In this document: positions 32,410 to 57,251 of the stretch, piece after piece | Layout: every line of letters begins with the position of its first letter | How positions within the stretch are numbered: the first letter of the stretch is position 1 | Assembly (NCBI GenBank): GCA_949751835.1 | Contig: CATKHK010000052.1 | Span: forward strand, 62,001-126,000 | Length of the DNA: 64,000 bases | Source: Blepharisma japonicum | Lineage: Eukaryota > Ciliophora > Heterotrichea > Heterotrichida > Blepharismidae | Reading direction: 5' to 3' | Notes under the pieces: generated by a model | Told to the model about the DNA's origin: nothing | Seen by the model: only the letters and a program-made list of their open reading frames with translations | Database searches by the model: none | Translations under genes and position numbers: made by a program

Positions 32410-34365
32410 ATGAAGCAAGATGACGATTCGATATCCAGCCTCTCAAATCTTATATTAGTCTCCCCAAAGCCAGGCTCAAACATCGGAAGGGAATTCAGTA
32501 CATTAGAATTCAATAGCACCAAAGAAAATTACACAGTTAAATGAGATAAAAGCAAATTTAGTGGGAAATATTTATTTCATCCTGAAAGCTATTGAAAACT
32601 GATCTGAGACATTTCACTACTGCTCTTCCTTCTTTTCCAAGGACTCTATATTCCTTTTTATCTCGGCTTTGGAATTCCTCTTACAGGCGCAATGCTCTAT
32701 CTAGATTTTGTAATCACATTAGCTTTTTGTATAGATATCCTCTTCAATTTCAACACTGGTTTTTTTAGAAAGGGTGCTTTAGTGATGGACCGAGCTCTAA
32801 TAGCGAAGAATTATTTTTTCTCATGGTTTTTCTTAGACATGCTTTCAAACTTCCCTTACAATTGAGTCATAAACGGAGGGGTTTTCAATGACTCATCAGG
32901 CAGCATGTCAGGTACCCAGATGGCACGTATGGTGAGAATGATAAAATTTGTGAAGATGCTAAGATTGGTCAGATTTGCAAAGCTGAAGATGCTTTTTGTA
33001 AAAATAGAAGAAATTATCGCTGATGAGCTCTTGTCTGGCTTGATTGTGCTGTTTAAAACGATCTTCATTATATTCTTATTAGCTCATTGAAATGCTTGCT
33101 TATGATTTTTTATTGGATCCCAGGATCGAAGTAACCATCCAGATTCGTGGGTGTCTCAGTTTGAAAAAAATTTTGCAACCCATTTGACGACAATGGATTA
33201 TTATGTCACTTCGCTTTATTGGTCATATACTACCATGCTTACTGTGGGGTATGGTGACATTCACGCGGTGACTCTTGATGAAAAAATAGTAGCAATGATG
33301 AGTATGGTGCTTGCAAGTGGCTTTTTTGGCTTTATGATAGGGAATATTGGAAGTATTGTGGAAAGATCAAGCTTAAGAGAAAGTAACCATCGAGAAGTGA
33401 TAATTAGCATCACTAAATATATGAGATTGCATAATATACCTAAGGAGCTTCAGTTCAAAGTGAGAAACTACCTAGAGCATGCATATGAAGAGGAAATAAG
33501 GAAAGGGATTGAAGATGACGAAATTTTGACAATGCTAAGTGTGCCCTTAAGAGATGAAATTGCGAGATACAAATACTTGCCAATTATCCAAACTTGTTCT
33601 ATTTTTAGCAAGTTCTTTAATTTGCAGACTATTACTTATTTTGCAAAATGGCTTCAAGAAGAGACATTCGCCCCTGATGATGACGTTATTAAGGCAGGAG
33701 AAAAGGATAGGATTCTTTACTTTGTGAACTCTGGATCAGTCAGTGTCTATTATGGATCTCCTTTATCAAGTGCAGCAATTCTTTCCAAAGGAAAATATTT
33801 TGGGGAAATTGCATTTTTTGCAAATCACCCACGGACTGCAAGCGTCAAAAGTGTAGAATTTTCAGATATCCTATCTGTAGATTTCAGCCAAGTGTGAGAT
33901 GGGATAGAGCAACAGCCCAGACTCCAAGAAATTTTTACTCTCATTGAGACAATCTGCGAAGATGGCGACTACACAGAGATCAACGTTGCCTGTTATCTAT
34001 GTAAAAAGAATGGGCATGTAGCTATCAACTGCACGACGATGGCTGTGCATACTGAAGATTCCCGAAAAGCGTGAATGTCAAAGAAACAAGCAGGGACTTA
34101 TAAGATCAATTTAAGTGAATATTCAGCACCAAAAGTCAAAAGGAAGGAAAGAAAAGTAAAGCACGTCATGAGCACTTTCAATATCAAAAATCACAAAGAA
34201 CTGCAAGAAAAAATCTCCAATTTCGTTGCTAAAAGGAGAACTAATAAGAGCAACTCCACAAAGCTAAGCGAGATCAGCCAGCTTGAAGATGTGCCTTTTC
34301 CACTAAGGCACCAAATAAGCAAGATATACAAAGACTCAAGCAGTGGGACTGAAAATCAAGAGTAA
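32410..34365 (+). CDS. Voltage/cyclic-nucleotide-type K+ channel with C-terminal CCHC knuckle
   Basis: 651 residues, many TGA=Trp. Two in-frame stops just upstream fix the start. Six membrane helices are visible; S4 (~165-195) has Arg/Lys at every third position, and the selectivity filter is Thr278-Val-Gly-Tyr-Gly-Asp283, so it conducts K+. After S6 comes a C-linker and a cyclic-nucleotide-binding fold (Gly-Ser-Val-Ser-Val...Gly-Lys-Tyr-Phe-Gly-Glu-Ile-Ala...Arg-Thr-Ala-Ser). The tail carries Cys528-x2-Cys531-x4-His536-x4-Cys541, a zinc-knuckle pattern, then a basic region. CNBD K+ channels are expanded in ciliates, where they shape swimming behaviour. Ligand binding versus an EAG-like inert CNBD cannot be told. 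Stop TAA. Confidence 0.93.
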
Positions 34366-40285: not shown

Positions 40286-43153
40286 ATGGCTAATAATTTC
40301 ATCGACATTCCAGAGAACTTTTGCTGTCCTATAACAGGAGATTTAATGCAAGATCCAGTACTCGCATCAGATGGGCATAGCTATGAACGATCATCAATTA
40401 TTGCTTGACTCCAAAGAAATAAAATCAGTCCTCTTTTGGGATTGGTCCTGGAGAATACTTCCCTTGTTGATAATCATAAGTTAAAGACAATAATTAACAG
40501 CTTCAAAGAAAAGATGCCTGAAAGCCAACGAGCGAATCTAAACAAAAGGGATTTAAGCGAAGCTATCGCAAATTTTGAAAAAAAAGCCATGCAACGTGAT
40601 GATGAAATAAAATGGGTAAAAGCTGGAAAAATTGATAAAGCTAGCAGAATTTATGAGGAGCATGCTCAATTTAAAGCTAATTTTGAAAACTTCTTAAAAA
40701 ATTTTTATGAATTACAAAAGCAGATTCAACAATATGAAAGATTTATAAACTCAAGTGTATCAGAAAAGCATTGCTCTAATAAATGGCAATTCATTATGAA
40801 TTCTAAATATTATAAAATCATTACTCTATTCACAGAATTTAATTCAGCAGTTAAAAGAAATGAAAGTATTAATTTAGCAAGTAAAACTATATTTACTTAT
40901 TTATGCCAAGCTAAAGAAAATGAAAAAATTAGTTTGATAAAGAATTTTTGCATTAATAAAGAAATAGTACTCGATCATGCACAAATTAATTTGATTTTAG
41001 CCCAAAATATTTTAGATAATTTAAGAAGCTCAAAAGAGCTCGAATCCTTGAAAGAAAGTTATCTAAATAAAATCAGTTTGAAGTCTCAATGGAAACTCTG
41101 CAGCTCAATCATAGATCTACTTACAGAAGAGTTAAAAGAAACTCTTTATGATATCGTTTTACTATCAAAAACTACAAACTTAGTAGGTTTAGCAGCAAGT
41201 AATGCGTTCACTCTTCTTAATAAATCTGGATTTTCATTTACAAACAAAGATTTAAGCAGGATTAGCATTCCTTACGCAGATTTGTCCTATAGTATGCTAA
41301 TTAACACAAATTTTGAATCAAGCAATCTCCACGAAGTTGATTTATCAATGGCTCAGATTTATGACTCAAACTTCAAAAATTGTGATATGGCCAAAGCAGA
41401 TTTTGGAGAAGAAATATTCATGTGCGGAATAACGGGAAAAGTAGCTTTTTCTCTATGTGGAGGATTTCTTGCAATTACTTATAATGAAACAATTATTTTA
41501 TATGATGCTAAAACCTATCAAGAAATTGCTCAGTTAGTAGGGCACACTTCTCATATAAATTCATTATTGTTTTCTGATAACGGGAATTATTTAATGACTG
41601 CAAGTAATAATCAAGCGATTTTATGAGATACTTCTTCTCGTCTTCAAATAGAACAATTTCCAATATATATAAGCTACTATAGTTTTTCGCCTTGCAATAA
41701 TTATCTTTGCCTAGTTCCTGACTCTTGGTCAGAGATTATAAGGATTTATAACATAAACACCAAAGAAATAGTGCATGAAATTAAAGATATATTCTCTTCA
41801 ATATCTTTTGCTCATTTTTCTTATTCAGGAAATAATTTGATAATTTTAGACGGACGCGAGTGTGACTTTCTTAATTCATGAAATATATCCAAAGAGACTA
41901 TTACATATAATATCTATTGCGAAAAATATTCACAAGTTGCTATATCTTTGAATCGTAAGTATCTAGCTTATCATACATATCAGAATAATATATCAATTTA
42001 CACTACTGAAACGTTGGAAGAAATAGGAACTTTTAAAGCTAGTACTAATAGTTCTTTGACATTTTCTCCTTGTGGAAGATATTTAGCTTCTACTTCCATA
42101 GAAAAAGGAATAATAATTTTCAATTTAGAATTACAAAGAATTATTATTGAAATTTCAGATAATAAAAATTGATTAATAGAATCCCTTATTTTTCCACCAA
42201 AACAAAAACGTTTCTTTGTTAAAACTGCTGACAAGAAATTATTATCATTGAAAATTATTGAAAATGCAGCAGCAAACAAGAAATGGCTTCCAAGAAAAGC
42301 AATTAAAGCAGCTTCATTTTCAAATGATAACAAATATTTTGCTGTAGCAACAGAAGAAGGGCGGATTTTTATATTTTTAACAGAAAATCAAACACTATTC
42401 CAACAATTTGGGGCTCATCGTGAGGGGATTTCATTAATTTTTTGGTCAGGAATTGTGTTGCATTCGGTAAATGTCTGCTGGAATTTAATTAAAATCTGAA
42501 ATATTTATGACTTGTCTGTGCTAAGGATAATCAAAACAAATTCGAATTCCCAATGAATTGAGTTTTCTCCAGATGGTAAAAAATTCCTATCCTGTGAAAA
42601 GATGAACTCAGTGACAATATGAGATATAGATACAAATAAAATAATCTCTCAATGAAGTCCTCATAGCAGTTTATCTTCTATTTGCCATTGATCACTCTGT
42701 GGAAATTTTTTACTATCCTGCAGCTCTGATAAAACATTAAGAATTTGGAGTGCAAGCAATCAGGAATTATTAATTGAACTGAATAATTTTAATGATGATT
42801 GTAATGCTCATTTAATTAGCACATCTTATTGTGGAAGCTTTTTAATGCATAGAGATAGGGCTAAAAGTATTAAGATTTGAAATTTAGAAGATGTAAGCGA
42901 AGAACTCAAATTAGTCAAAGAATTGCATGTTGAAAATTTGATAACTTCAATTATGCTACCGATAGATGGCTATAGTATTATAGCAGCTGATGCGAAAGGA
43001 ATTATAAAAGTGTGGAATTATCATACAGCCCAAATGATTCGTAGCATAATTGCTCATAAAGAAATAGTTACTTGTTTTGATTTATCTATAGACAAACATT
43101 TTCTTGTTTCTGCAAGCAAAGATAAGGTCGTAAAATTATGGAAATACGGATAA
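40286..43153 (+). CDS. U-box / pentapeptide / WD40 protein
   Basis: 955 residues, TGA=Trp throughout, including the U-box Trp in Ile-Ile-Ala-Trp-Leu. The U-box (~5-75) has the family signature [10 protein letters not shown]...Asp-Pro-Val...Asp-Gly-His-Ser-Tyr-Glu-Arg; this fold binds E2 enzymes, so E3 ligase activity is likely. A helical segment (~85-320), a short pentapeptide-like region (~328-380) and WD40-type repeats to the end follow. Residues from ~232 on are paralogous to the gene at 28727-30940. The ends of the propeller give Val-Lys-Leu-Trp-Lys-Tyr-Gly. Substrates unknown. Stop TAA. Confidence 0.9.
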
Positions 43154-43764: not shown

Positions 43765-45138
43765 ATGTCCAATTCCATCAAAAAATCGAGTGGAAATATT
43801 TATAGCCGACTTTATCAAAGCACTAAAAAAGCGCTTTCAAGATCCATGTCTTCTGAGTCCGCAAGCTTTAGAAAATCAGATAGTATGAACTCAATTCCTA
43901 AGCTAAAAACTGACTTCTATTCTAAAGGGTTAAAATTCAAGCAAGAAACAATGAAAATCATTGAAAATGAGAGACAGAAGTTAGAAGAAGAACGGAAAAA
44001 AGAAGAGACCTTCCATCCAAATATTGAAAAGAGCTCCAAACATTTTCAAAACAGGCCAAATAGCAAGACTGAAAATCTACTAATAGAAGCAGGAAAAACA
44101 TATCAAGCCCACTTAGACGAGCTAAAAGAAGAGCGACAAAACGTTGAAATGATTGAATGCTCTTTTCATCCTACAATTAGTGAATCAAGGACTTCAAGGA
44201 GCCGAGAGCAATTTAGAGATGTTTATACTGATCTTTATAATGACGCTGAACAAAGAAAGTCAAGAAACACCTCATTGACAGAGCAAAGCATCAGCCAGTA
44301 TTCATTCAAGCCAAAAGTAAAAAGCCATAACAGAGCTACAACCGAGACGAAGGAAGAAATCTTTGAAAGGCTTTACAGCTCGAAATCAAAATTTTATGAA
44401 GACATGGAAGAAAGGAAAAAGCAAATGGAGTCAGTAGAAGTTTCAATTGATCAGGTCAGCGGGCAAGAGCTGTTTCATCCAGCTATAAATAATACTAAAG
44501 GGTCAATAACTAGAGGAGGAGAAGAGCCAATATGGGAGCATCTCTATTCATTGAAAGATGTTCACTCTGTAAAGCAACAAGAAGAAAATGATAAAACTTT
44601 GAAATTCTGGGAAGCCAGCTCTGCTGCTAAAAAACTAAGTGATGCTTCGCAAAAGATCTTCCAAGACTTTCAGCAAAAGCAGCTGGAAAAGCTGTTCAAG
44701 TCTTTCGATTCTGATGAGGATGGAAAAATATCATCTGGCTCTATAAAGATAGAGCATTTAGATGTTAAGAGTCTTGTGATTCTTTCTCCTTACTTAAATT
44801 ACCTTGAAGAAAGTAAAGAGGAAAATGATTTAGATCAATTCTTAGGATATATGGATGAACTTATAAAGTCAATGAATGTAGGTGACAAGTCTCATCTTTT
44901 GAAAAGAGAAGTAAAGCCAGTTGTAGAAGAAAAAATTGTCCTCGTTAGTCCAAAATCAGCGAAACTGGCAGAAAAAAGAAGAGGATCATTGCCTGATAAT
45001 ATTTATGATAGACTTGTTTGGACTTCGCAGTTAAATGAGCTAAAGGCAAATGAACTAAGATTGATGAGAGAGCGGGCAGAGCTATCTGGCTGCACGTTTA
45101 AACCTGTAACAAAAGCAGGGAAAAAAAAGAAAAAGTAG
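43765..45138 (+). CDS. EF-hand / FxP-repeat coiled-coil protein
   Basis: 457 residues, no TGA. It is a paralogue of the protein at 61744-63501. Recurrent units pair a Tyr/Phe-x-Arg-Leu-Tyr motif with a later Cys/Tyr-Ser/Thr-Phe-x-Pro motif (Glu-Cys-Ser-Phe-His-Pro, Gln-Tyr-Ser-Phe-Lys-Pro, Gly-Cys-Thr-Phe-Lys-Pro), separated by charged helices. A single canonical EF-hand loop, Asp-Ser-Asp-Glu-Asp-Gly-Lys-Ile, lies near residue 314, followed by a degenerate partner. The conserved Ile-Trp-Glu-His-Leu-Tyr-Ser-Leu-Lys-Asp block precedes it. Proteins of this look in ciliates are cytoskeletal, perhaps axonemal or basal-body; that is inference. Stop TAG. Confidence 0.85.
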   Translation: MSNSIKKSSGNIYSRLYQSTKKALSRSMSSESASFRKSDSMNSIPKLKTDFYSKGLKFKQETMKIIENERQKLEEERKKEETFHPNIEKSSKHFQNRPNSKTENLLIEAGKTYQAHLDELKEERQNVEMIECSFHPTISESRTSRSREQFRDVYTDLYNDAEQRKSRNTSLTEQSISQYSFKPKVKSHNRATTETKEEIFERLYSSKSKFYEDMEERKKQMESVEVSIDQVSGQELFHPAINNTKGSITRGGEEPIWEHLYSLKDVHSVKQQEENDKTLKFWEASSAAKKLSDASQKIFQDFQQKQLEKLFKSFDSDEDGKISSGSIKIEHLDVKSLVILSPYLNYLEESKEENDLDQFLGYMDELIKSMNVGDKSHLLKREVKPVVEEKIVLVSPKSAKLAEKRRGSLPDNIYDRLVWTSQLNELKANELRLMRERAELSGCTFKPVTKAGKKKKK

Positions 45139-45230: not shown

Positions 45231-48200
45231 TTATATAAATTTCCTCTTTGAATTCAATCTTGCTATTTCATCATTTTCTGCTTCTTCATTGTCATTTATG
45301 CAGAGCTCAATATTAGAGTTTTTTAATTCAATTGAGGCATCATCTTCTACTGCGTTTTCTGCTATTTCTTGATCCACCTTTTCAACTGAACATTTGTTTT
45401 CTGATGTGCTCTTTGTTTCTTTCTTAGAAACAAAATTGATTTCTTTTTTGTTGATTTCACAGGCTTCTACCTTTCCCAGCATAAATTTAAATAGGATGGA
45501 TATGTCCATACCTTTTTCAGTGATAATTAGGGATGGAATTTTTTTCGCTTTGAAAGCTCCTCATACTAAAATTGCAACCCAACCCGCCAATTGAAAGCAG
45601 AGTCACAGTATAAAAGTCACTTTAAGAACATTTGCTAAGGAAGTAAACATCACAGACCAAATAACCATAAACATTGTTATAAATAATAGCAAACATACTT
45701 TATCGTAGTTATAAGTTTTTACTCGAAGTATAATCCATAAATAAATCATTAATAATACCATATATACAAATCCATATATTTCTGGCTGATAAATACCCAT
45801 AGTTTTTTTTAGAATTACAAAGAAAACTTGGGTTAAGCTTTTGATTACAAGATACTTTGGCATTGTTTTAATATGCAAAGAAACTTGTGTTTCTTGATAC
45901 ATTGGCCTATAGTAAACCGTCAAAGGCACATAAATAAAGATTACAACTATAGATAGCAGAGCGAATGCTAAATGCTTTCCTTGCCAGCAATATTGATAGC
46001 AATCTTTATCTAAATAAGTATCAGAAATAGAATCTCCAGTTGCATGAGTACATGAAAAGATGTTTAATAAAAACGAAATTATTGGGATAAATAAAGCATT
46101 ACCTACAAGAGGCAATATAGCATCTGCAAAATAACTTAAATTTACACAAAATTTTCATATGAAAATGCTTTTGAACCTTGTAATAGTAAATACATTCAAA
46201 AATATACTGAATGTAGCAGCGCTAAGAGTAATAACCATTGTAATCCAAAATACTGTTCCTTTAAAATAAACTAAGCCTTCTAAGTCAATAGAAATTGATT
46301 TACTTATATAGGAAACTGCAGAATTTATAGATGAACTGGATGGACCTAAATATAAATATTGAAAAAAATCAATTGCAATAATTAAATAAACCATCATATC
46401 AGCAAATTTTAATTTTTTGGGTTTCTCCAATTTGGGAAAGTCAACTACTTTCCATTTTTTTCATATTATTCATGTGATAATTCCGGATATGGAGAAAATT
46501 ATAAAGCATGCCACAAAAAGCATCCCAATGCCAACACTAGAATTTTTTACAAGCTTTTTTTCAAAGGGACAGTCAAATTCATTATGTCTTTTATCTGTCG
46601 GGATTGTTTTGGAGTTTCCTGGCCATGTGACTTGCTGTATTACGTTAAACGGAATTGATGATCCTGGAGTGTAAACTACAACTGAAGTTTCGTAATATGT
46701 TTTGTCAGTAGTATTATAGTAAAAGTTAAAAAGATTGATAGGAGCTGAATTTCTATTATTGCTGCTTGATTCAATTGAAATTGCTCCACTGCAGCCCACA
46801 AATTTCTGTTTTCTCAAATTTTTATTCAATATCAATGGGTTTTCTATATCTTCCCCTTTGTTAATTGTATAATCAAGCCCACGAGCTGCAAGCATAAATG
46901 CATCAAATGAAAAGCATTTATAGCTTGGATCTTGAGGGTAAAAAGCTTTTGATATTTCAGATTTAATTTGTTTTCCATAATCACCAATATACTCATCACT
47001 AAAAGCGCTTAAAGAGCCAAGCATTAACTCTTTTCTTTTCATTATGTACTCATCAATCTCATTTGAAATAGACTGAATACCGCCAGTTTTACTATAAAAA
47101 AACGGAACAAATTCTCCTTCTCTGAATCCAGCATCATAAAACCCTTCTATTGCATGCCAAGCATATGGATTTTCCATAAACATAACACAGACTCTTGCTT
47201 TAGATTCATAAATATTTTTAAATATATACTTATACTTTGTATAATTTGTCCTCAAGTACGTTTGCGGAATCAGTCTTTTGTCTTCATCATTTAATATAGA
47301 TATTCCTAGCACTGTACATTGTTGTACGAATGTTTTATATACAGATAAGACTGATGATTTATCACTATAAATTACTGCTACATTTTTTCATCCAAAATAG
47401 GCTAAACTTTTGGCCATAATTACTGCAAAATATTCTGAACTTGTTATGATCCTCATGTATTCTGGATATTCTGTTTTATTTGATAATGTTGCAACTCGGG
47501 TTCCAGCACCACAATGAGGGATCTCTAATCCTAATTTTCGAAAAATTGTAATATATCCAACTGCTCCAGCACTAAATGAGGGTGAAAGAAATGCAACTCC
47601 AAGCTGATCTTTCAATGGGCTCATACAGTTATAATAAAAATCGAAATCGTATACATTTGCTCCACAATTTGTTTCAAACTGTAAAATATAAAAATTTTTT
47701 AACAGATCAGTTGAATTATTCATAACCCATTGTGCATACAAAGAGCCTAAAAAATTCTGAGGATTTAATAAATTTGTCACTCCGTTTGGTTCAGCTGATC
47801 CAGAAGCAACTGATAGTACGATCTCTGTTTTTGATATTTTTGGAAAGATAGTTGTATTTCCAGGAAAAATAAATGTTTTATTAAAAATACGAAATTTTGA
47901 ATTTTCTATTTCAGCTTTCAAAATCTTCTCGTTGCTATCTATATTTATTATTGAAAATATAGGCAATTTTCTATGTTGATAAGTATTTGACTCAAATAAT
48001 TCCTTTAGAAGAAGTGAATCGAAATTTTGGGATAGCTGTAACCTTGAATATCTTGATTTAAATTCAAGAAACATATCAGTAAAATGCTTTATTGCTAAAA
48101 TTTCATATTCAGAATATGATTCTGCAGTTTCTAGACCCTTTTCGACATACAAAATTAAACCATCCTCGTCTGCTGCCCAAATACTAGAGCTTCCGGCAAG

Positions 48201-48875
48201 AACTCCAGCATCTTTTTTATAGACTTTTTCTTCTTTGAGATTTTCAATTAATTCCTGAAAATTTTCTCCTTCTTCTAAAATAAAAAACATTTGGATTCCA
48301 TCTGGTTTAATAATTTTGCTAATCAAATTACTTATTCTTCCTTTGTTTATTGCATCAGGAAGAATTACTTTTAAGGAAACCTGATTTTTCAGTCGTTTTT
48401 CAATATTTGACACAATTTTCACATTTTTTGGCAAATCGTTTGATATAATTGCTAAATTCGTTCAGCCAAAAAAATTAATAATTAATTCAGCAATTTCCTG
48501 ATGTTGATCAATTGAATTATGGAGAAAAAATTGTCATTCTCCGTCATAACTTGCATCAACATTCATTTTGAGATTAACTATTTTGTTATTCTCTGTATAT
48601 TCATAAATAATTCTATTTCAATATATGTCAAAAGTTGCATCAACAATCATAAAATTTATTTGTGTATCTAAAATCTCATTCAAATTGTGGCTTGGAGTCA
48701 TTCTTATAAAATTCACACCAAAAATTTGTTCACTTTGATTAATTGTGTTAGACAAACTATTTGTCGCGTCTGTTACAAATTTTGAATTTGTTTGCTCCGA
48801 ATAAAGGACAGTAATTATGAGATCTCCAAGTGAATGCACTAATTGAATAAGCCCAAAAAAGACAACGAAAATCAT
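45231..48875 (-). CDS. Double Venus-flytrap multi-pass receptor, copy 1
   Basis: 1214 residues, one frame with many TGA=Trp. Signal peptide (~1-16). Two PBP1/Venus-flytrap modules in tandem: each has the hallmark Ser/Asp-x-x-Gln or Ser-Ser-Glu...Phe-Gly-Trp strand (Trp138 and Trp496, 358 residues apart, one module length). Then about nine hydrophobic helices (~780-1110) and a Lys/Glu-rich cytosolic tail. Single flytraps occur in class C GPCRs and glutamate receptors, where they bind small ligands; here two are fused in one chain. The helix region is not a clear seven-helix class C core. Highly similar to the next two genes, same strand, head to tail. Stop TAA. Confidence 0.88.
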
Positions 48876-49424
48876 CTTTTAATTTATTTTGATAAGGAAT
48901 CTATTATGCTATGAATTTAATAAATGATCTTAAAAGAAATTCAATCAACCATAAAAACATTTTCTTAAAATAAAAAATTTTGACCTCTTAAAAAACAAAT
49001 TGTGAACAACGAAGTGATCAGCTCAAAATTTGCATTTTTTATTAAAATAAGCTAAAATCTGTTGTTTAAATGAATCACTGAATAAAAATATTGATTTATA
49101 AAAGTTTTTCATTGCCTTCTTAATTTATACCAAATTTTATATTTATCAACCGTAATCTTTTTGATTTTAATTATTAAATGATAAATCAATAATAATCCAT
49201 TGTAAAAAATGATAATTTCTTATTTATTTATCAATTGAGAGTAAACCTATAAGTAATCAAAACAAATTATTCAAAAACTATAGGGTTGCACCATTGCGAA
49301 TTAATTAATTAATATTTATCTCTTAAAATATTTTAAAATAAAATTAATATTAAATAGGTTAAATGCATCTATTCATTAAAATTATAACATTTCTAGATCA
49401 TAAAGAATTTAAATTTTGTGTTGA
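48876..49424. promoter_or_regulatory. Spacer between receptor copies 1 and 2
   Basis: 549 bp, AT-rich. Shares with the next spacer a conserved block (49173-49201) and, ~106 bp upstream of the copy 1 start, an oligo-T/AAGAGGTC element. No coding frame. Confidence 0.55.
48981..48996 (-). promoter_or_regulatory. Shared upstream element, receptor copy 1
   Basis: Minus strand GTTTTTTAAGAGGTCA, ending ~106 bp before the ATG. Related sequence sits ~121 and ~123 bp before the ATGs of copies 2 and 3. Confidence 0.45.
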
Positions 49425-52400
49425 TTATAAAAGTCTTCTGTTTGAATTCATTCTAGCTGTTTCGTCGTTTTTTGCTTCTTCATTATCATCAATTCTCAAT
49501 GGATTGCCAGAGCTCCAAAAAATTTGAGAAGCGTTTTCTTCCATTAATATTTCTATTTTGTTTTCGTTTACCTTTTCATGCAAAATATTGATTTTGCATG
49601 AGTCATTTATTTCTTTCTTAGAAACATATTTCATTTCTTTTGCGTTTATTGCATCAGCTTCAACTTTTCCCATCATAAATTTAAAAAGAATAGATATGTC
49701 CATTCCTTTTTCAATGATAATCATAGATGGAAGCTTTTTGGCTTTCAGTGCTCCCCAGAGTAAAATAGAAGCCCACCCAGTCATTTGGCAGCAAAGCCAA
49801 TATATAAAATTTGCTTCAAGCATGTTTGATAAAGATGTAAATAGCACAGACCAAACCACCATTAGCATTGTTATAAGCAATAGTAAGCATATTTTATCGT
49901 AATTATATGCCTTTATGCGATTAATAATCCAAATATAAATTGAAAATAAAATCAAATAAACAAATCCATGTATACCTGGCTGATAAAGACCAAGCGTTTT
50001 TTTAAGGACTACAAAAAAAATCTGAGTTAGGCTTTTGATGACAAGGTACTTTGGCATTGTTTTAATGTGTAAAGATTCTTGTACTTCTTGATACACTGGT
50101 CGGTAGTACACAGTTAAAGGTACATAAATAAAAGTAGCAGCTATCGATAGCAGAGCAAATGCTAAATGTTTTCCTTGCCAGCAATATTGATAGCAATCTT
50201 TGTCTAGGTAAGTATCAGAAATAGAGTCACTAGTAGCATGAGTGCATGAAAAAATGTTTAAAAGAAATGAGATTATTGGGATAAATAAAGCGTTTCCAAG
50301 CAAAGGCATCAATGCTTCTGCAAAAACTCTTATGCTTGTGCAAATTTTCATTTTGAATAAATTTTTAAATTTAGTAACTGTAAATATATTTAGAAATATA
50401 CTTAATAAAACAGCACAAAGTGTGATTACCATTGTGATTCAAAAAATTGTTCCTTTAAAAGTAATAAAACTTGTTAAGTCAACAGAAGTTGCTTCACTCA
50501 TATAAGCTACTGCAGAATTCATTGATGAGACTGGTGGACCTAAATATAAATATTGAAAGAACTCAATTGTGAGGACCAAATAAACCATCATATCGGCAAA
50601 TTTTATTTTTTTGGGTTTTACTAATTTTGGATAATCAACAATTTTTCATTTTTTTCATATAAGTCAGGTAATAATCCCTGAAATAGAAAAAATCGAAAAG
50701 CATACAGCAAAGAGAACTCCAACACCAGCTTGAGAATTGCTGACTAGCCGTTTTTCGAACGGGCAGTCCCAGTTTTTATCTCTTGTATCATCTGGAACAG
50801 TTTTAGAGTTTTTTGGTCACGTTACTTGCTGTATTACATTAAAAGGAATTGCTGATTCTGGGGTGTAAACTATTACTGATGTCTCGATATATGTTTTGCT
50901 AGTTTCATTATAATAAAAATTAAAGAGATTGATAGGAGCAGAATTCCTATTGTTGCTATCTGACTCAATAGAAATTATTCCGCTGCAGCCCAAAAATCTT
51001 TGGTTCCTAAAATTTCTATTCAATATCAATGGATTTTCTATATCATCCCCTCGCTTAATTGTATAGTCAAGTCCATGAGCTGCTAGCATAAAGGCATCAA
51101 ATGAAAAGCATTTATAGCTGGGATTTTGAGGGTAAAAGGCTTTTGTTATTTCAGCTTTTATTTGTTTCCCATAGTCTCCAATGTATTCATCGCTGAAAAC
51201 ACTCAAAGAGCCAAGCATTAATTCTTTTCTTTTCTTTATATATATATCAAGGTCATTTGAAATAGACTGAACACCACCAGTTTTACTGTCAAAAATAGGA
51301 ATAAGATCTCCTTCCCTAAATCCAACATCATAAAGACCTTCAATAATATACCAAGCATTTGGATTATCAACAAATAAAACACAAACCCTCACCTTGGTCT
51401 TATACATACTTTGGAAAATGTATTTATACTGTGTGAAATTAGCCCTCAAGTATCCTACTGGAATCATTCTTTTGTCCTCATCATTTAATATAGATATTCC
51501 TAGTCTTTCACATTCCTGAGCGAATGTTTTGTATTCTGCCGTATCTGCTGCTTTACTTGAATAAATAACTGCGACATTTTTTCACCCAAAATACGCTAAA
51601 CTTTTGGCTATAATTACTGCGAAGTAATCATTACTTGTAGTAACCCTCATATATTCTGGATACACTGTTTTATTTGATAATATGGCAGTTCTTACTCCAG
51701 CACCACAATGAGGAATCTCCAATCCCAATTTTCGAAAAACACTAATATAGCCAACTGCTCCAGCCCCAAATGAAGGAGAAAGAAACGCAACCCCAAGCTG
51801 ATTTTTTACTGGGCTCATGCATTTACAATAAAAATCAAAATTGTATACATTCGCTCCACAATCTGTTTGAAACATAGATATATAAAAATTTTGAAGCAGA
51901 GAGGTTGAGTTATTTACGACTCACTGTGCATATAATGATCCCAAAAAGTTCTGAGGGTTAAAAAGATTTACAACACCATTTGGTTCAGTTGATCCAGAAG
52001 CAATTGATAATACAATCTCTGTTTCTGATATTTTGGGAAAAGAAGTGGTGTTTCCAGGATAAATAAATGTTCTATTAAAAATGTGAAATGTTGAGTTTTC
52101 TACTTCAGCTTTCAAAAATTTTTCATTATTGTCAATGTTTATAATTGAAAATATAGGCAATTTTCTATGTTGATAGGTATTCGACTCAAATAATTGCTTA
52201 AGAAGAAGCGAATTGAATTCTTCAAACTGTTGTGAACTTGAATATCTAGATTTGAATTCTAGAACTATGTCAGTAAAGTATTTTATTGATAAAATTTCAT
52301 ACTCAGAATATGATTCTGCGGTTTCTAAGCCTTTTTCAACATACAAAATTAGGCCGCTTTCATTAGCTGCTCAAATGCTAGAGCTACCTGCAAGAACTCC

Positions 52401-53069
52401 TGCACCTTTTTTATAGATTTTCTCATTCTTGAGATTTTCAATTAAATACTGGAAATTTTCTCCTTCTTTCAAAATAAAAAACATTTGAATGCCTTCAGGT
52501 TTAATAATTTTGCTAATTAAACTACTTATTCTTTCTTTATCTATTGAGTCAGGAAGGATTATTTTTTGTGAAATTTGATTTTTTAGCCGTTTTTCGATAT
52601 TAGATGCCATTTTCACACTTGTCGGAAAATCGTTTGATAATATTGCCAAATTCTTTCAGCCAAAAAAATTTATGACTAATTCAGCTATTTCATTATGCTG
52701 ATCAATTGAATTATGGAGAAAAAATTGTCATTCGCCGTCATAATTTGCATCTAAGTTCATATTCAGATTCACTATATTGTTATTCTCAGTATACTCATAT
52801 ATCATTTTATTCCAGAATATATCAAAAGTTGCATCTACAATCATCAAATTCTGCTTAGCGTCTAAAATATCAGCCAAGTTTTGGTTTAGAGTCACCTCTA
52901 TGAATTGAATGTCAAAAAATTGTTCATTTTGATTTATTGTGTTATATAAACTGTTTTTGGCATCTCTTACAAAATTTGAATTTGTTTGTATAGAATAAAG
53001 CACATAAATCATAATATCCCCAAGTGCGTATGCTAATTGAAAAAGGCCAAGATAGATAATGAGGATCAT
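49425..53069 (-). CDS. Double Venus-flytrap multi-pass receptor, copy 2
   Basis: 1214 residues, exactly the length of copy 1, with the same order: signal peptide, two flytrap modules, about nine helices, charged tail. The Cys-containing loop before the fifth helix (Cys-Thr-His-Ala...Asp-Lys-Asp-Cys-Tyr-Gln-Tyr-Cys-Trp) is identical in plan in all three copies, suggesting disulfides. The two flytraps are aligned without gaps to copy 1 over long stretches. The tail diverges most and is Glu/Asn-rich. Intact frame throughout, TGA=Trp, stop TAA. An unequal-crossover tandem duplicate is the simplest origin. Confidence 0.88.
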
Positions 53070-53600
53070 TTTTTGGTTTAATTTATTATAGACCAGAATG
53101 AATTTAATTTATTATGATGCTAACCTATGCTTAAATTCTCTATACCAAATCAATAGACTCAAAAAGATTGCTTTAAACTTAGAACAGCTTGACCTTTTAA
53201 AAAAAAAAAAAGAAATCCAAAAATTTACAATAAATCCAACTAAAAATATTTTTTGCCAAAAATCCTCTATTTAATCAGGTGCAATCCCTAGGCGATTATT
53301 TGTTTTCTTTGAATGGCATATCATTTATAAAGAATTCTTTAACATATGTTTACTGATTTAAATTAAAAGGAGCTTAATTTTATTTAAATGATAAATTAAT
53401 AATAATCCATTTAGCTGTCTATTTATAATCAAAATGAGTGAAATTCTTTAATTAATTTGAAATTACAAAGAAATCATAATTTACAAAAGTATATATGTCT
53501 AAATAGAGTAAACAAAAAGCTATTAGCATATTCTAAATTAATTCATAAAAATTTTATTAGAATAAGTTTGTTGGCATAAAAATCATAGCACCTACATTAA
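53070..53600. promoter_or_regulatory. Spacer between receptor copies 2 and 3
   Basis: 531 bp; carries the conserved block at 53383-53412 (AAATGATAAATTAATAATAA and onward, also at 49176) and the oligo-A/T element at 53190-53212. No frame. Confidence 0.55.
53190..53212 (-). promoter_or_regulatory. Shared upstream element, receptor copy 2
   Basis: Minus strand has a T-run of 13 followed by AAAAGGTCA, ~121 bp before the ATG of copy 2. Confidence 0.45.
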
Positions 53601-56600
53601 TTAAATAAATTTCCTATTTGTATTCATTCCTGTTGTGTCATCACTCTTTCCCTCTTCATTTTCATCAATTTTTAGACCATTATCAGAACTCAAAAACTTT
53701 TCATCAGACTTCTCATCTTCAATAATTATTTCTATTTTATCCTCGTCTGCTACTTTTACATTAGAATCATCTTTTTTAGAATTATCAGGATCAGTAACTT
53801 CTTTCTTAGAAACAAATTTGATTTCTTTTTTGCCAATTTGGCTAGCTTCAATCTTTCCTAACATAAATTTAAACAAAATTGATACGTCAATTCCTTTTTC
53901 TGTGATAATTAAGGATGGAATTTTTTTTGCTTTTATAAATCCCCAGAGTAAAATAGCAGCTCAGCCAATCAGCTGACAGCACATCCAAAGTATAAAAGTT
54001 ACTTCAAGTATATTTGCTAAAGATGTAAATAGCACAGACCAAATCACCATAAGCATTGATATGAATAGCAGCAAACACATTCTATCATAATTATATGCCT
54101 TTATGCGAAGGATAATTCAAATGTAGATTGAAAATAAAATCAAATAGACAAATCCATGTATTTCTGGCTGATAAAGGCCAAGTGTTTTCTTAAGGACTAC
54201 AAATAATATCTGAGTTAAGCTTTTAATAACAAGGTATTTTGGCATTGTTTTGATGTGCAAGGACTCTTGCACTTCTTGATAAACCGGTCTATAATATACA
54301 GTCAAAGGAACATAAATAAAAATTGCGATTATAGATTGAATAGCAAATGCTAAGTGTTTTCCTTGCCAACAATATTGATAGCAATCTTTATCTAAATAAG
54401 TATCAGAAATAGAGTCTCCATTGGCATGAGTGCATGAAAATACATTTAATAGAAATGAAATTATTGGGATAAATAAAGCGTTTCCAACCAAAGGCATTAA
54501 TGTCTCTGCAAATAGTCTTAAATTTACACAGCATCTTCATTTAAAAACATGCTTAAACCTTGTAACTGTAAAAACATTTAGAAATATACTTAATAAAACG
54601 GCACAAATAGCGAGAATCATTAAAACCCAAAATACTGTCCCTTTAAAAGTAATAAAATTTGATAAATCAACAGAAGTTGCTTCGCTCATATAAGCTACTG
54701 CAGAATTCATTGATGAAATTGGCGGACCTAAATATAAATATTGAAAAAATTCAATCGCTATAACCAAATAAACAATCATGTCAGCAAACTTTAGTTTTTT
54801 TGTTTTCTCCAATTTAGGATAATCAACAATTTTTCATTTTTTCCATATTAACCAAGTGATAATGCCTGATACTGAAAAAATTGAGAAACATACCCCAAAA
54901 AGCATCCCAATACCACTTGCAGAATTTCTAACAAGCTTTTTATCAAATGGGCAGTCTCAATTTATATCTCTCATGTCTACAGGAACTTTGTAGGAGCCCC
55001 CAGGCCATATTATTGGCCCCATCAAATCAAATAGTGTGGATGACTCAGGATAATAAACTATAACTGATGCCTCGATATAAGTTTTACTAGTTTCATTATA
55101 ATAAAAATTAAAGAGAGTGATAGGTGCAGAATTTCTATTATTACTGCCTGATTCAATAGAAATAATTCCGCTGCAGCCCACAAATTTTTGTTTCCTCAAA
55201 TTTTTATTCAGTGTTAATGGATTTTCTATGTCCTCACCTCTATTAATGGTATAATCAAGCCCATGAGCTGCAAGCATAAAGGCATCAAATGAAAAGCATT
55301 TATAGCTAGGATCTTGAGGGTAAAATGCCTGCGCTATTCCTGTTTTAATTTGTTTTCCATAATCTCCAACATATTCATTGCCGAACACACTCAAAGAGCC
55401 AAGCATAAGTTCTTTTCTTTTCTTTATATATATATCAAGCTCATTTGAAATAGCCTGAACACCTCCTGTTTTACTGTAGAAAACAGGAACAAGATCTCCT
55501 TCCCTAAATCCAACATCATAAAGCCCTTCAATTGCATGCCAAGCATATGGATTTTCTACAAGAATAATACAAACCCTCGCTTTAGACTCATAAATATTTT
55601 GAAATACATGCTTATATTGTGTAAAATTTGTCCTCGTATATGTCGGTGAAATAATTCTTTTGTTTTCATCATTCAAAATATTTAGCCCATATAATTCACA
55701 TTGCTGTACAAATTTCTTGTAGACAGGGATAATTGATGATTTATTAGCATAAATAACAGCAACGTTTTTTCAGCCAAAATATGGAGTACCTTTGGCTAAA
55801 ACAACTGCAAAATATTCAGCACTTGTAGTGACCCGCATATATTCAGGATATTGAGTTTTATTAGATAAAGTAGCAACTCGAGTTCCAGCGCCACATTGAG
55901 GGATCTCTAATTCTAATGCTCGAAGGACTGAAATATATCCTAATGCTCCAGCACTAAATGAAGGTGAAAGAAATGCGACTCCAAGCTTATCTTTGTTTGA
56001 GCTCATACAGTTATAATAAAAATTGAAATCATATGTGTTTGAGCCACAGTCAGTTTGGAATTGAGTAATTAAGAAATTGTTAAGAAGAGAGGTTGAGTTA
56101 TTTACAACTCACTGTGCATACAAGGAGCCTAAAAAATTTTGAGGGTTTAAAAGATTTTTGGGCAAGCCATTTGGTTCTGTTGATCCTGAAGCAATAGAAA
56201 TTACAATCTCACTTTCTGATATTTTTGGAAAAACTGTCGTGTTTCCTGGGTAAAGAAATGTGTTATTGAATACCTGAAAAGTTGAATTGTAAACTTCTGC
56301 TTTAAGAAGCTTCTCTCCTTTGTCAATATTTATTATTGAAAATTTTGGCAATTTTCGATGCTGATATGTGTTTGACTCAAATATTTGCTGAATTAGCCGT
56401 GAATCAAATGATTCAATACTCAAATATTTTGATTTGAAATCTAGTATTATATCAGTAAATTGTTTTATTGCCAAAAACTCATATTCAGAATATGAGTTCG
56501 CTGCTTCCAATCCTTTCTCAACATAAATTATTAATCCATCCTCACCATCAAGCCAAATGCTGGTGCTTCCAGCTACTACACCTGCACCTTTTTTATAGAT

Positions 56601-57251
56601 TTTTTCATTTTTAAGACCTTCTAATAAATACTGAAAATGGTCTCCTTCTACCAGAACTAAAAACATCTGAATTCCTCCTGGCTTTATGATTTTCGCGATA
56701 TAATTTTCTATATTATCTTCAATTATTGTATCTGGAATTATCACTTTCAGCGAAATCTGGTTATTTAACCGTTTTTCAATATTGGAAGCTATTTTAAGAT
56801 TTGCCTGGACTTCACTAGAAACTATGGCTACATTACTTCACCCAAAAAAGTTTATAACTGATTCAGCAATATTTTGATGTTGATCAACAGAATTATGGAG
56901 AAAAAATTGCCAATCTCCTGTGTGGCTTGATTCAAGACTCAATATAAGGTTTACTATATTACTATCCTCAGTGTACTCATAAATTATTCTATTTCAATAA
57001 ATGTTAAAAGTCGCATCAACGATTATAAAATTCAGGTTGGTATCTAAAATATCAGCCAAATTTTGATTTAAAACCATTTCTATGAATTGAATATCAAAAA
57101 ATTGTCCACTTTGATTGAGCGTGTTAGATAAGCTGATTTTTGCATCTGTTACAAAATTTGAGTTTGTTTGCTCTGAATAAAGTACATAAATGATAAGATC
57201 TCCAAGTGAATGTGTTAATTGAATAAGGCTAAGATAAACAATGAAAAGCAT
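53601..57251 (-). CDS. Double Venus-flytrap multi-pass receptor, copy 3
   Basis: 1216 residues with the same architecture as copies 1 and 2. Both Phe-Gly-Trp strands use TGA for Trp. Differences cluster in the first flytrap and in the tail, which is Asp/Lys/Ser-rich here. The segment before the first helix differs from the others (Val-Asp-Met-Arg-Asp-Ile-Asn), replacing a Thr-Trp-Pro-Gly context kept in copy 1. Intact, stop TAA. The three copies keep open frames over 3.6 kb each, so all are under selection or recent. Confidence 0.88.

What the first reader, a model, noticed from the sequence alone, without database searches (positions are those of the whole stretch)
45231..57251. Tandem cluster of receptors with two Venus-flytrap modules each
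Three intact head-to-tail genes (1214, 1214, 1216 residues) carry two Phe-Gly-Trp flytrap strands 358 residues apart, then ~9 helices. Class C GPCRs and glutamate receptors have one flytrap of this type per chain. Two fused in one chain would allow intramolecular dimer-like gating. The membrane part does not look like a standard seven-helix core, so this may be a ciliate-specific receptor family.
Basis: partly seen in the sequence, partly recalled or inferred. Interest (0 to 1): 0.78.

Follow-up and report, generated by a model that had tools for sequence, protein, structure and literature searches.

The report
Double-flytrap receptor family in a ciliate
Three neighbouring genes in this ciliate genome encode probable cell-surface receptors that each carry two ligand-binding "flytrap" modules on one chain plus an unfamiliar membrane part with about nine helices, and they belong to a very large family that may serve to taste chemicals.

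Summary
With UGA read as Trp, three intact head-to-tail minus-strand genes (1214, 1214, 1216 codons; 70-73% identical) lie at the stated coordinates. Each chain has a signal-peptide-like start, two tandem PBP1-type (Venus-flytrap) modules and about nine hydrophobic segments. The second module (FT2) matches ANF_receptor in 38 of 38 members tested. The first (FT1) is divergent; as a family profile it matches the NMDA-receptor GluN1 amino-terminal domain (E 1e-13) and aligns with FT2 (hhalign 96%), but for the window clade alone the link is weak. In the members tested FT1 and FT2 form two separate groups (37 of 37, 38 of 38), so the pair predates the family's expansion. The genome holds at least 131 places with homologous stretches of 2.7 kb or more, many in arrays. 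The membrane part matches neither 7tm_3 (0 of 38) nor a solved structure by sequence, and no heterotrimeric G-alpha was found. dN/dS of about 0.2 says the genes are used. Best reading: an expanded chemoreceptor family, not a class C GPCR by the tests made; its output is unproven. Both structure predictions failed (pLDDT 32-35). Double flytraps exist elsewhere (trypanosome adenylate cyclases), so this is a new variant.

The parts
45231..48875 (-). receptor gene 1 (P0001, 1214 aa, code TGA=W)
49425..53069 (-). receptor gene 2 (P0002, 1214 aa)
53601..57251 (-). receptor gene 3 (P0003, 1216 aa)
48828..48875 (-). gene 1: signal-peptide-like start, residues 1-16 (boundary approximate)
   Evidence: read from sequence; no signal-peptide program was run
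47829..48827 (-). gene 1: FT1, first PBP1-type module, residues 17-349, ending in FIFPGNTTIFP (boundaries approximate, by alignment)
46587..47828 (-). gene 1: FT2, second PBP1-type module (ANF_receptor), residues 350-763, ending in VTWPGNSKTIP
45483..46586 (-). gene 1: membrane module with nine hydrophobic segments, residues 764-1131 (peaks near 793, 836, 889, 928, 978, 1017, 1041, 1075, 1098)
45234..45482 (-). gene 1: C-terminal tail, residues 1132-1214, fast-evolving (cytoplasmic if the N-out/C-in topology is right)
   Evidence: 46% identity, dN/dS 0.49 against gene 2; topology
52023..53021 (-). gene 2: FT1
50781..52022 (-). gene 2: FT2
49677..50780 (-). gene 2: membrane module
56214..57203 (-). 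gene 3: FT1
54969..56213 (-). gene 3: FT2
53865..54968 (-). gene 3: membrane module

Best explanation
These are three members of a lineage-expanded family of plasma-membrane chemoreceptors. SHOWN (by sequence): an ectodomain of two tandem PBP1-type flytraps present as two distinct modules in the members tested; a membrane module of about nine hydrophobic segments whose charge pattern fits N-outside/C-inside, with three invariant Cys in one outer loop; at least 131 homologous places in the genome, largely in arrays; purifying selection. INFERRED: small ligands (amino-acid-like or other solutes, perhaps including signals between cells) are caught by FT2 and possibly FT1. Clamshell closure and re-packing of the FT1-FT2 pair within one chain, or of two chains, is passed through the Cys-Pro-containing linker to the membrane module. 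That module, without a recognised catalytic domain and in a genome where no G-alpha was detected, most likely gives a direct electrical/Ca2+ or adaptor-mediated output rather than acting as a classical GPCR. The output step is the least certain (about 0.35 on its own).
For: FT2 is ANF_receptor in 38 of 38 members scanned at E up to 0.01, best 9.1e-43; its profile matches solved flytraps of GLR3.4 (1.9e-24), GABA-B1 (1.4e-20), taste (2.6e-19) and mGlu7 (3e-18) receptors (best 60 of 212 shown). The FT1 profile (37 members) matches the GluN1 amino-terminal domain at 1.1e-13, and at 2.9e-9 with 31 members, the four canonical ones and two near-duplicates left out. FT1-FT2 hhalign 96.2%, E 2.1e-9, running to the module end. 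Leave-one-out HMMs: 37 of 37 FT1 and 38 of 38 FT2 segments score higher with their own model. Topology: inner loops carry more K+R than outer loops (4.5, 2.6, 2.4, 1.3, 5.7 against 2.1, 2.4, 1.8, 0.1, 0.3; segment limits set by hand). Family size and clustering. dN/dS 0.21 in each pair of the three genes. No other Pfam domain listed in the window proteins. No G-alpha: all 19 rows lie in profile positions 159-264, and the only two rows flagged over the cut-off are two Arf-like frames.
Against: No ligand, expression or physiology data. Both AlphaFold2 models were unusable (pLDDT 34.6 and 31.7), so neither the FT1 fold nor the membrane fold was seen. FT1 of the eight members nearest the window matches GluN1 only weakly (best E 0.0049, over 53 residues at the module end) and aligns with FT2 at only 48.7%; only 16 of 37 single FT1 sequences hit ANF_receptor at E up to 1, and P0001's own FT1 does not. 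The end motif [FWY]PG is in 34 of 37 FT1 but only 7 of 38 FT2 ends. The genome encodes 7TM proteins, two of three with a Pfam RGS hit, which hints that some G-protein signalling may exist after all, and G-protein activity has been reported in Tetrahymena (PMC3226668, listing and passages).
Confidence: 0.6

Rival explanations
1. A highly divergent class C (GABA-B/mGlu-like) GPCR with a duplicated flytrap, whose 7tm_3 core is no longer recognised and whose extra segments are additions; it signals through a divergent G protein.
For: The FT2 profile matches GABA-B, mGlu, taste, CaSR and plant GLR flytraps. 7TM-RGS proteins exist in the genome. Seven of nine hydrophobic segments are strong. One of 38 membrane modules has a faint 7TMR-DISM_7TM match (E 0.012).
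Against: 0 of 38 membrane modules match 7tm_3 at E up to 10, while the same library lists 7tm_3 for all three positive-control proteins of the genome (1.9e-9, 4.8e-5, 5.2e-4; only the first over the curated cut-off). hhalign to those three gives 0.6%, though with a thin 3-sequence profile. Nine segments fit the charge rule and keep the 3-Cys loop outside. No G-alpha seen.
Confidence: 0.15
2. A binding-protein-dependent transporter or channel for nutrients: the tethered flytraps capture solute and hand it to the membrane module, as free PBPs do for bacterial importers.
For: The FT2 of L010 matches a bacterial branched-chain amino-acid binding protein (4gnr, 9.8e-15), and Peripla_BP_6 is matched by 26 of 38 FT2. 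The membrane module has no recognised signalling domain.
Against: No transporter family is matched consistently. At least 131 diverged copies in arrays is a pattern more usual for receptors than for transporters (general knowledge).
Confidence: 0.12
3. A narrower version of the best explanation: only FT2 senses; FT1 is a worn, non-binding module used for assembly or spacing, so there is no dual-ligand gating.
For: FT1 is the least conserved part (mean column identity 30% against 40% and 44%). It has no Cys column kept in 60% or more of members while FT2 has four. Its best structural relative, the GluN1 ATD, is by general knowledge an allosteric/assembly domain.
Against: FT1 is under purifying selection as strong as the rest in the window trio (dN/dS 0.15-0.18).
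Confidence: 0.4

Closest known systems
Class C GPCRs (GABA-B, mGlu, CaSR, T1R; the V2R arrays of vertebrates, recalled)
   Same: PBP1/ANF_receptor ectodomain, signal-peptide-like start, multi-helix membrane part; V2Rs too form large tandem families (recalled)
   Different: two flytraps per chain; about nine hydrophobic segments; no 7tm_3 match (0 of 38); no G-alpha found
Ionotropic glutamate receptors (NMDA GluN1, plant GLR3.4)
   Same: the FT1 profile's best PDB matches are GluN1 amino-terminal domains, whose end IIWPGG aligns with the FT1 end of L010; the FT2 profile's best match is GLR3.4
   Different: second module is again PBP1, not the PBP2-type ligand-binding domain; no Lig_chan pore domain listed
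Trypanosome receptor-type adenylate cyclases
   Same: two Venus-flytrap domains in one chain (PMC6027212, passages read); a gene family (recalled)
   Different: those have one transmembrane helix and a catalytic domain; here about nine segments and no catalytic domain
Natriuretic peptide receptor / receptor guanylate cyclases
   Same: ANF_receptor ectodomain
   Different: one flytrap, one helix, cyclase domain (recalled); no cyclase domain here

Membership tests
PBP1 / ANF_receptor flytrap (FT2) | match to PF01094 | tested here: met
   38 of 38 at E up to 0.01; P0001-P0003 over the curated cut-off
PBP1 / ANF_receptor flytrap (FT1) | profile match to PBP1 domains | tested here: met
   family profile to GluN1 ATD 1.1e-13, 2.9e-9 with canonical members left out, hhalign to FT2 96.2%; window clade alone only weak; 16 of 37 single sequences hit PF01094 at E up to 1
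PBP1 / ANF_receptor flytrap (FT1) | two-lobed clamshell fold | tested here: inconclusive
   AlphaFold2 mean pLDDT 31.7; no fold search was run on it
Class C GPCR | 7tm_3 membrane core | tested here: not met
   0 of 38; three positive controls found in the same genome, one over the curated cut-off; hhalign 0.6% with a 3-sequence profile
Class C GPCR | seven helices | tested here: not met
   nine hydrophobic segments, two of them weak; a prediction from hydropathy only
Class C GPCR | heterotrimeric G-protein partner (G-alpha) | tested here: not met
   PF00503: 19 matches, all within profile positions 159-264; the two rows called over the cut-off (with neighbours) are Arf-like frames of 192 and 129 aa. 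Other rows were not read; assembly of 224 contigs
Ionotropic glutamate receptor | PBP2 ligand-binding domain and Lig_chan pore | tested here: not met
   no such Pfam hit in P0001-P0003 at E up to 10
Receptor adenylate/guanylate cyclase | cyclase catalytic domain and single helix | tested here: not met
Protist multi-helix module found behind Ephrin_rec_like/EGF-type ectodomains (recalled) | homology of the membrane module | not tested

The most novel reading that the evidence does not exclude
A further eukaryotic class of flytrap receptor: tandem PBP1 modules gating a new nine-helix, G-protein-independent transducer (possibly itself a channel), forming the main chemosensory repertoire of a heterotrich ciliate. 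Its members would be candidates for the unknown receptor of a small-molecule mating signal such as the tryptophan-derived gamone 2 of Blepharisma.
Probability: 0.22. Interest if true: 0.82.

Novelty: new variant of a known kind. Interest (0 to 1): 0.6.

Why it matters
A survey of 24 ciliates reported no family C GPCRs (PMC9960496, passages read; the word Blepharisma does not occur in its main text). Here a ciliate genome holds at least 131 flytrap-receptor places, and the 38 members tested would be missed by a 7tm_3 search because their membrane part does not match it. If they are chemoreceptors, the question of how a single cell tells food, toxins and mates apart becomes testable gene by gene. 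The double flytrap in one chain would be a natural model of how two clamshells are coupled, which in GABA-B and mGlu receptors needs two chains (general knowledge).

Tried and rejected
Their helix/strand order is not used as evidence.

PDB profile search with the membrane module: 0 hits at E up to 10. This is a weak negative: the same test with the three 7tm_3 proteins of the genome lists 17 chains (sorting nexin, RGS and one chemosensory protein) and no class C GPCR. The Pfam test is the one with a working positive control.

Considered and rejected: class C GPCR membership, iGluR and receptor cyclase, pseudogenes or assembly noise (open frames, dN/dS 0.21). Glycosylation sequons were counted as a topology test; FT1 is not enriched over shuffles (195 of 200 shuffles reach it), FT2 is (0 of 200), the membrane module is not (169 of 200), so the test is indecisive. 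A first, narrower regular expression for the FT1 end motif counted 21 of 37; the plain [FWY]PG counts 34 of 37 in FT1 and 7 of 38 in FT2, so the end motif is an FT1 hallmark rather than one kept in both modules.

Relatives outside this genome: none in viral contigs with the membrane module of L010 (5 pattern matches, none confirmed), none in prokaryote contigs with P0002 (108 pattern matches, none confirmed). Ephrin_rec_like proteins were checked as possible carriers of the same membrane module: in what was printed for loci L042-L061 and in the two giants I saw none by eye.

Literature: all 10 searches used. None listed a paper whose title or abstract start is on double-flytrap multi-helix receptors of ciliates; some listings were cut to the best rows, and most subscription papers are not in that library. 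No paper was read whole: passages only of PMC9942806, PMC12716839, PMC6027212, PMC9960496, PMC10892320, PMC3226668.
Full report
SETTING. The window is C52:62001-126000 of a 45.2-Mb, 224-contig genome held as G000. Telomere repeats CCCTAACA occur as runs (77 forward and 91 reverse matches of the triple repeat, none for the reversed control; those listed lie at low coordinates on the forward strand or high ones on the reverse), and TGA is read as Trp. Blepharisma stoltei has both features (PMC9942806, passages read), so a Blepharisma or close heterotrich is the likely source; the species was not established (the published B. stoltei macronuclear assembly is 41 Mb in 64 telomere-to-telomere sequences).

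OBSERVATION. Genes 2 and 3 are 73% and 70% identical to gene 1. The two Phe-Gly-Trp strands are 358 residues apart in genes 1 and 2 and 356 in gene 3. Pairwise dN/dS over the whole chain is 0.21 in each of the three pairs; the C-terminal tail is laxer (0.33-0.49).

MODULES. Pfam lists only ANF_receptor, best stretch between residues 447 and 709. I cut 38 genomic members (L001-L038; L001-L003 are the window genes) into FT1, FT2 and membrane parts by alignment (FT1 present in 37, L035 being a short locus of 2729 bp). FT2: ANF_receptor in 38 of 38; PDB profile hits to GLR3.4, GABA-B, T1R, mGlu, CaSR, best 1.9e-24. FT1: ANF_receptor in only 16 of 37 at E up to 1 and not in P0001's own FT1, but the family profile matches GluN1 amino-terminal domains at 1.1e-13 over profile positions 104-319. 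Leaving out the four canonical members (L009, L010, L011, L014) and two near-duplicates still gives 2.9e-9. With the eight members nearest the window alone the match is weak and confined to the module end (E 0.0049), and hhalign to FT2 gives 48.7%. FT1 against FT2 over the whole set: 96.2%, E 2.1e-9, running to the module end. The plain end motif [FWY]PG is in 34 of 37 FT1 and 7 of 38 FT2; GluN1 has WPGG at the matching place. So the first module is PBP1-type by homology, with the window clade's own FT1 tied to it mainly through the family (P0001's FT1 scores 323 bits with an FT1 HMM built without it; its close paralogues stayed in).

ONE OLD PAIR. With each member left out of model building, 37 of 37 FT1 segments score higher with the FT1 HMM and 38 of 38 FT2 segments with the FT2 HMM; cross-scores average 5.4 and 9.5 bits. 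In the members tested the pair thus existed before they diverged. Three further members fetched later (L066-L068) show the same layout by eye (not scored).

MEMBRANE PART. Nine hydrophobic segments (peaks near 793, 836, 889, 928, 978, 1017, 1041, 1075, 1098), two of them weak; with segment limits set by hand, K+R counts favour N-outside/C-inside. Invariant in the 38: Cys-Pro before segment 1, and D, Q, W, C, C, C-W, R, K, G further on. No Pfam family is matched by more than 3 of 38 members; the lowest E values are single members (DUF981 0.0019, 7TMR-DISM_7TM 0.012), and 7tm_3 is matched by none. The genome's own three 7tm_3 proteins (L039-L041, two with a Pfam RGS hit, one over the 7tm_3 cut-off) serve as positive control for Pfam and show no profile similarity to the module (0.6%, with a thin profile). 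No solved structure matches by sequence, but that test is insensitive.

FAMILY. Six genome searches listed 314 rows, which merge to 175 places; 131 of these span at least 2.7 kb of homologous sequence after merging, and 84 of the 131 have such a neighbour within 5 kb. At least two of the 131 carry in-frame TAA or TAG (C34:7564-10674; the merged C126:97816-100682). The 44 shorter places include pieces of one gene and members seen only by their FT2, some of which are full-length on reading (e.g. L012, L013, L020). The total is a lower bound because only the best candidates are scored.

G PROTEINS. The G-alpha profile gives 19 matches, all within positions 159-264 (a part shared with Arf-type GTPases, general knowledge). 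Two rows were flagged over the cut-off with neighbours in the frame; both are Arf-like frames (192 and 129 aa). This argues against, but does not exclude, G-alpha coupling; G-protein activity has been reported for Tetrahymena (PMC3226668).

HOW IT PROBABLY WORKS. Shown: two flytraps plus a multi-segment membrane module on one chain, selection, family size. Inferred: ligand-driven closure of FT2 (and perhaps FT1) changes the packing of the pair and is passed to the membrane module; output direct or through adaptors. Gamone 2 is a tryptophan derivative (PMC9942806), the sort of ligand flytraps bind; linking it to this family is speculation.

NOVELTY. Parts are known kinds; the combination was not seen in the listings of the papers searched. 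Double flytraps occur in trypanosome adenylate cyclases, so I rate it a new variant of a known kind. Automatic database names for such proteins may well exist; no eukaryotic database could be checked here.

Noticed in passing
L039 (C5:680687-681340), L040 (C25:371904-372662), L041 (C81:97858-98616): Three proteins with a 7tm_3-type membrane domain and no flytrap, two of them with an RGS domain by Pfam (the third reads RGS-like by eye), resembling plant RGS1 (recalled), in a genome where no G-alpha was detected.
   Followed up: partly
L042-L061: A family of proteins with Kelch-like repeats (by eye), an Ephrin_rec_like match and a short membrane-anchored C-terminus, several close together (C25, C33, C117, C53) (part of the output was cut).
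   Followed up: no
L069 (C35), L070 (C36): Giant Cys-rich Ephrin_rec_like proteins with one apparent membrane helix and a very long coiled-coil-like tail (by eye).
   Followed up: no
C126, e.g. C126:65437-77680 and 97816-101198; C34:7564-10674: Apparently decayed or interrupted receptor copies beside intact ones (in-frame TAA/TAG, split pieces).
   Followed up: no
L009, L010, L011, L014 (C133, C52, C173, C59): Four members (1216-1272 aa) with the most canonical flytraps; their FT1 scores 25.8-30.3 bits with the FT2 HMM, the next best member 10.6. L010 lies on the same contig as the window, at C52:242045-245548.
   Followed up: partly
window 40286-43153 (+): 955-aa protein with a U-box followed by many WD40 repeats.
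   Followed up: no
window 32410-34365 (+): 651-aa Ion_trans channel with a cNMP-binding domain.
   Followed up: no
window 43765-45138 (+): 457-aa protein of unknown family (no Pfam hit at E up to 0.001) whose gene ends 92 bases from the end of receptor gene 1, in convergent orientation.
   Followed up: no
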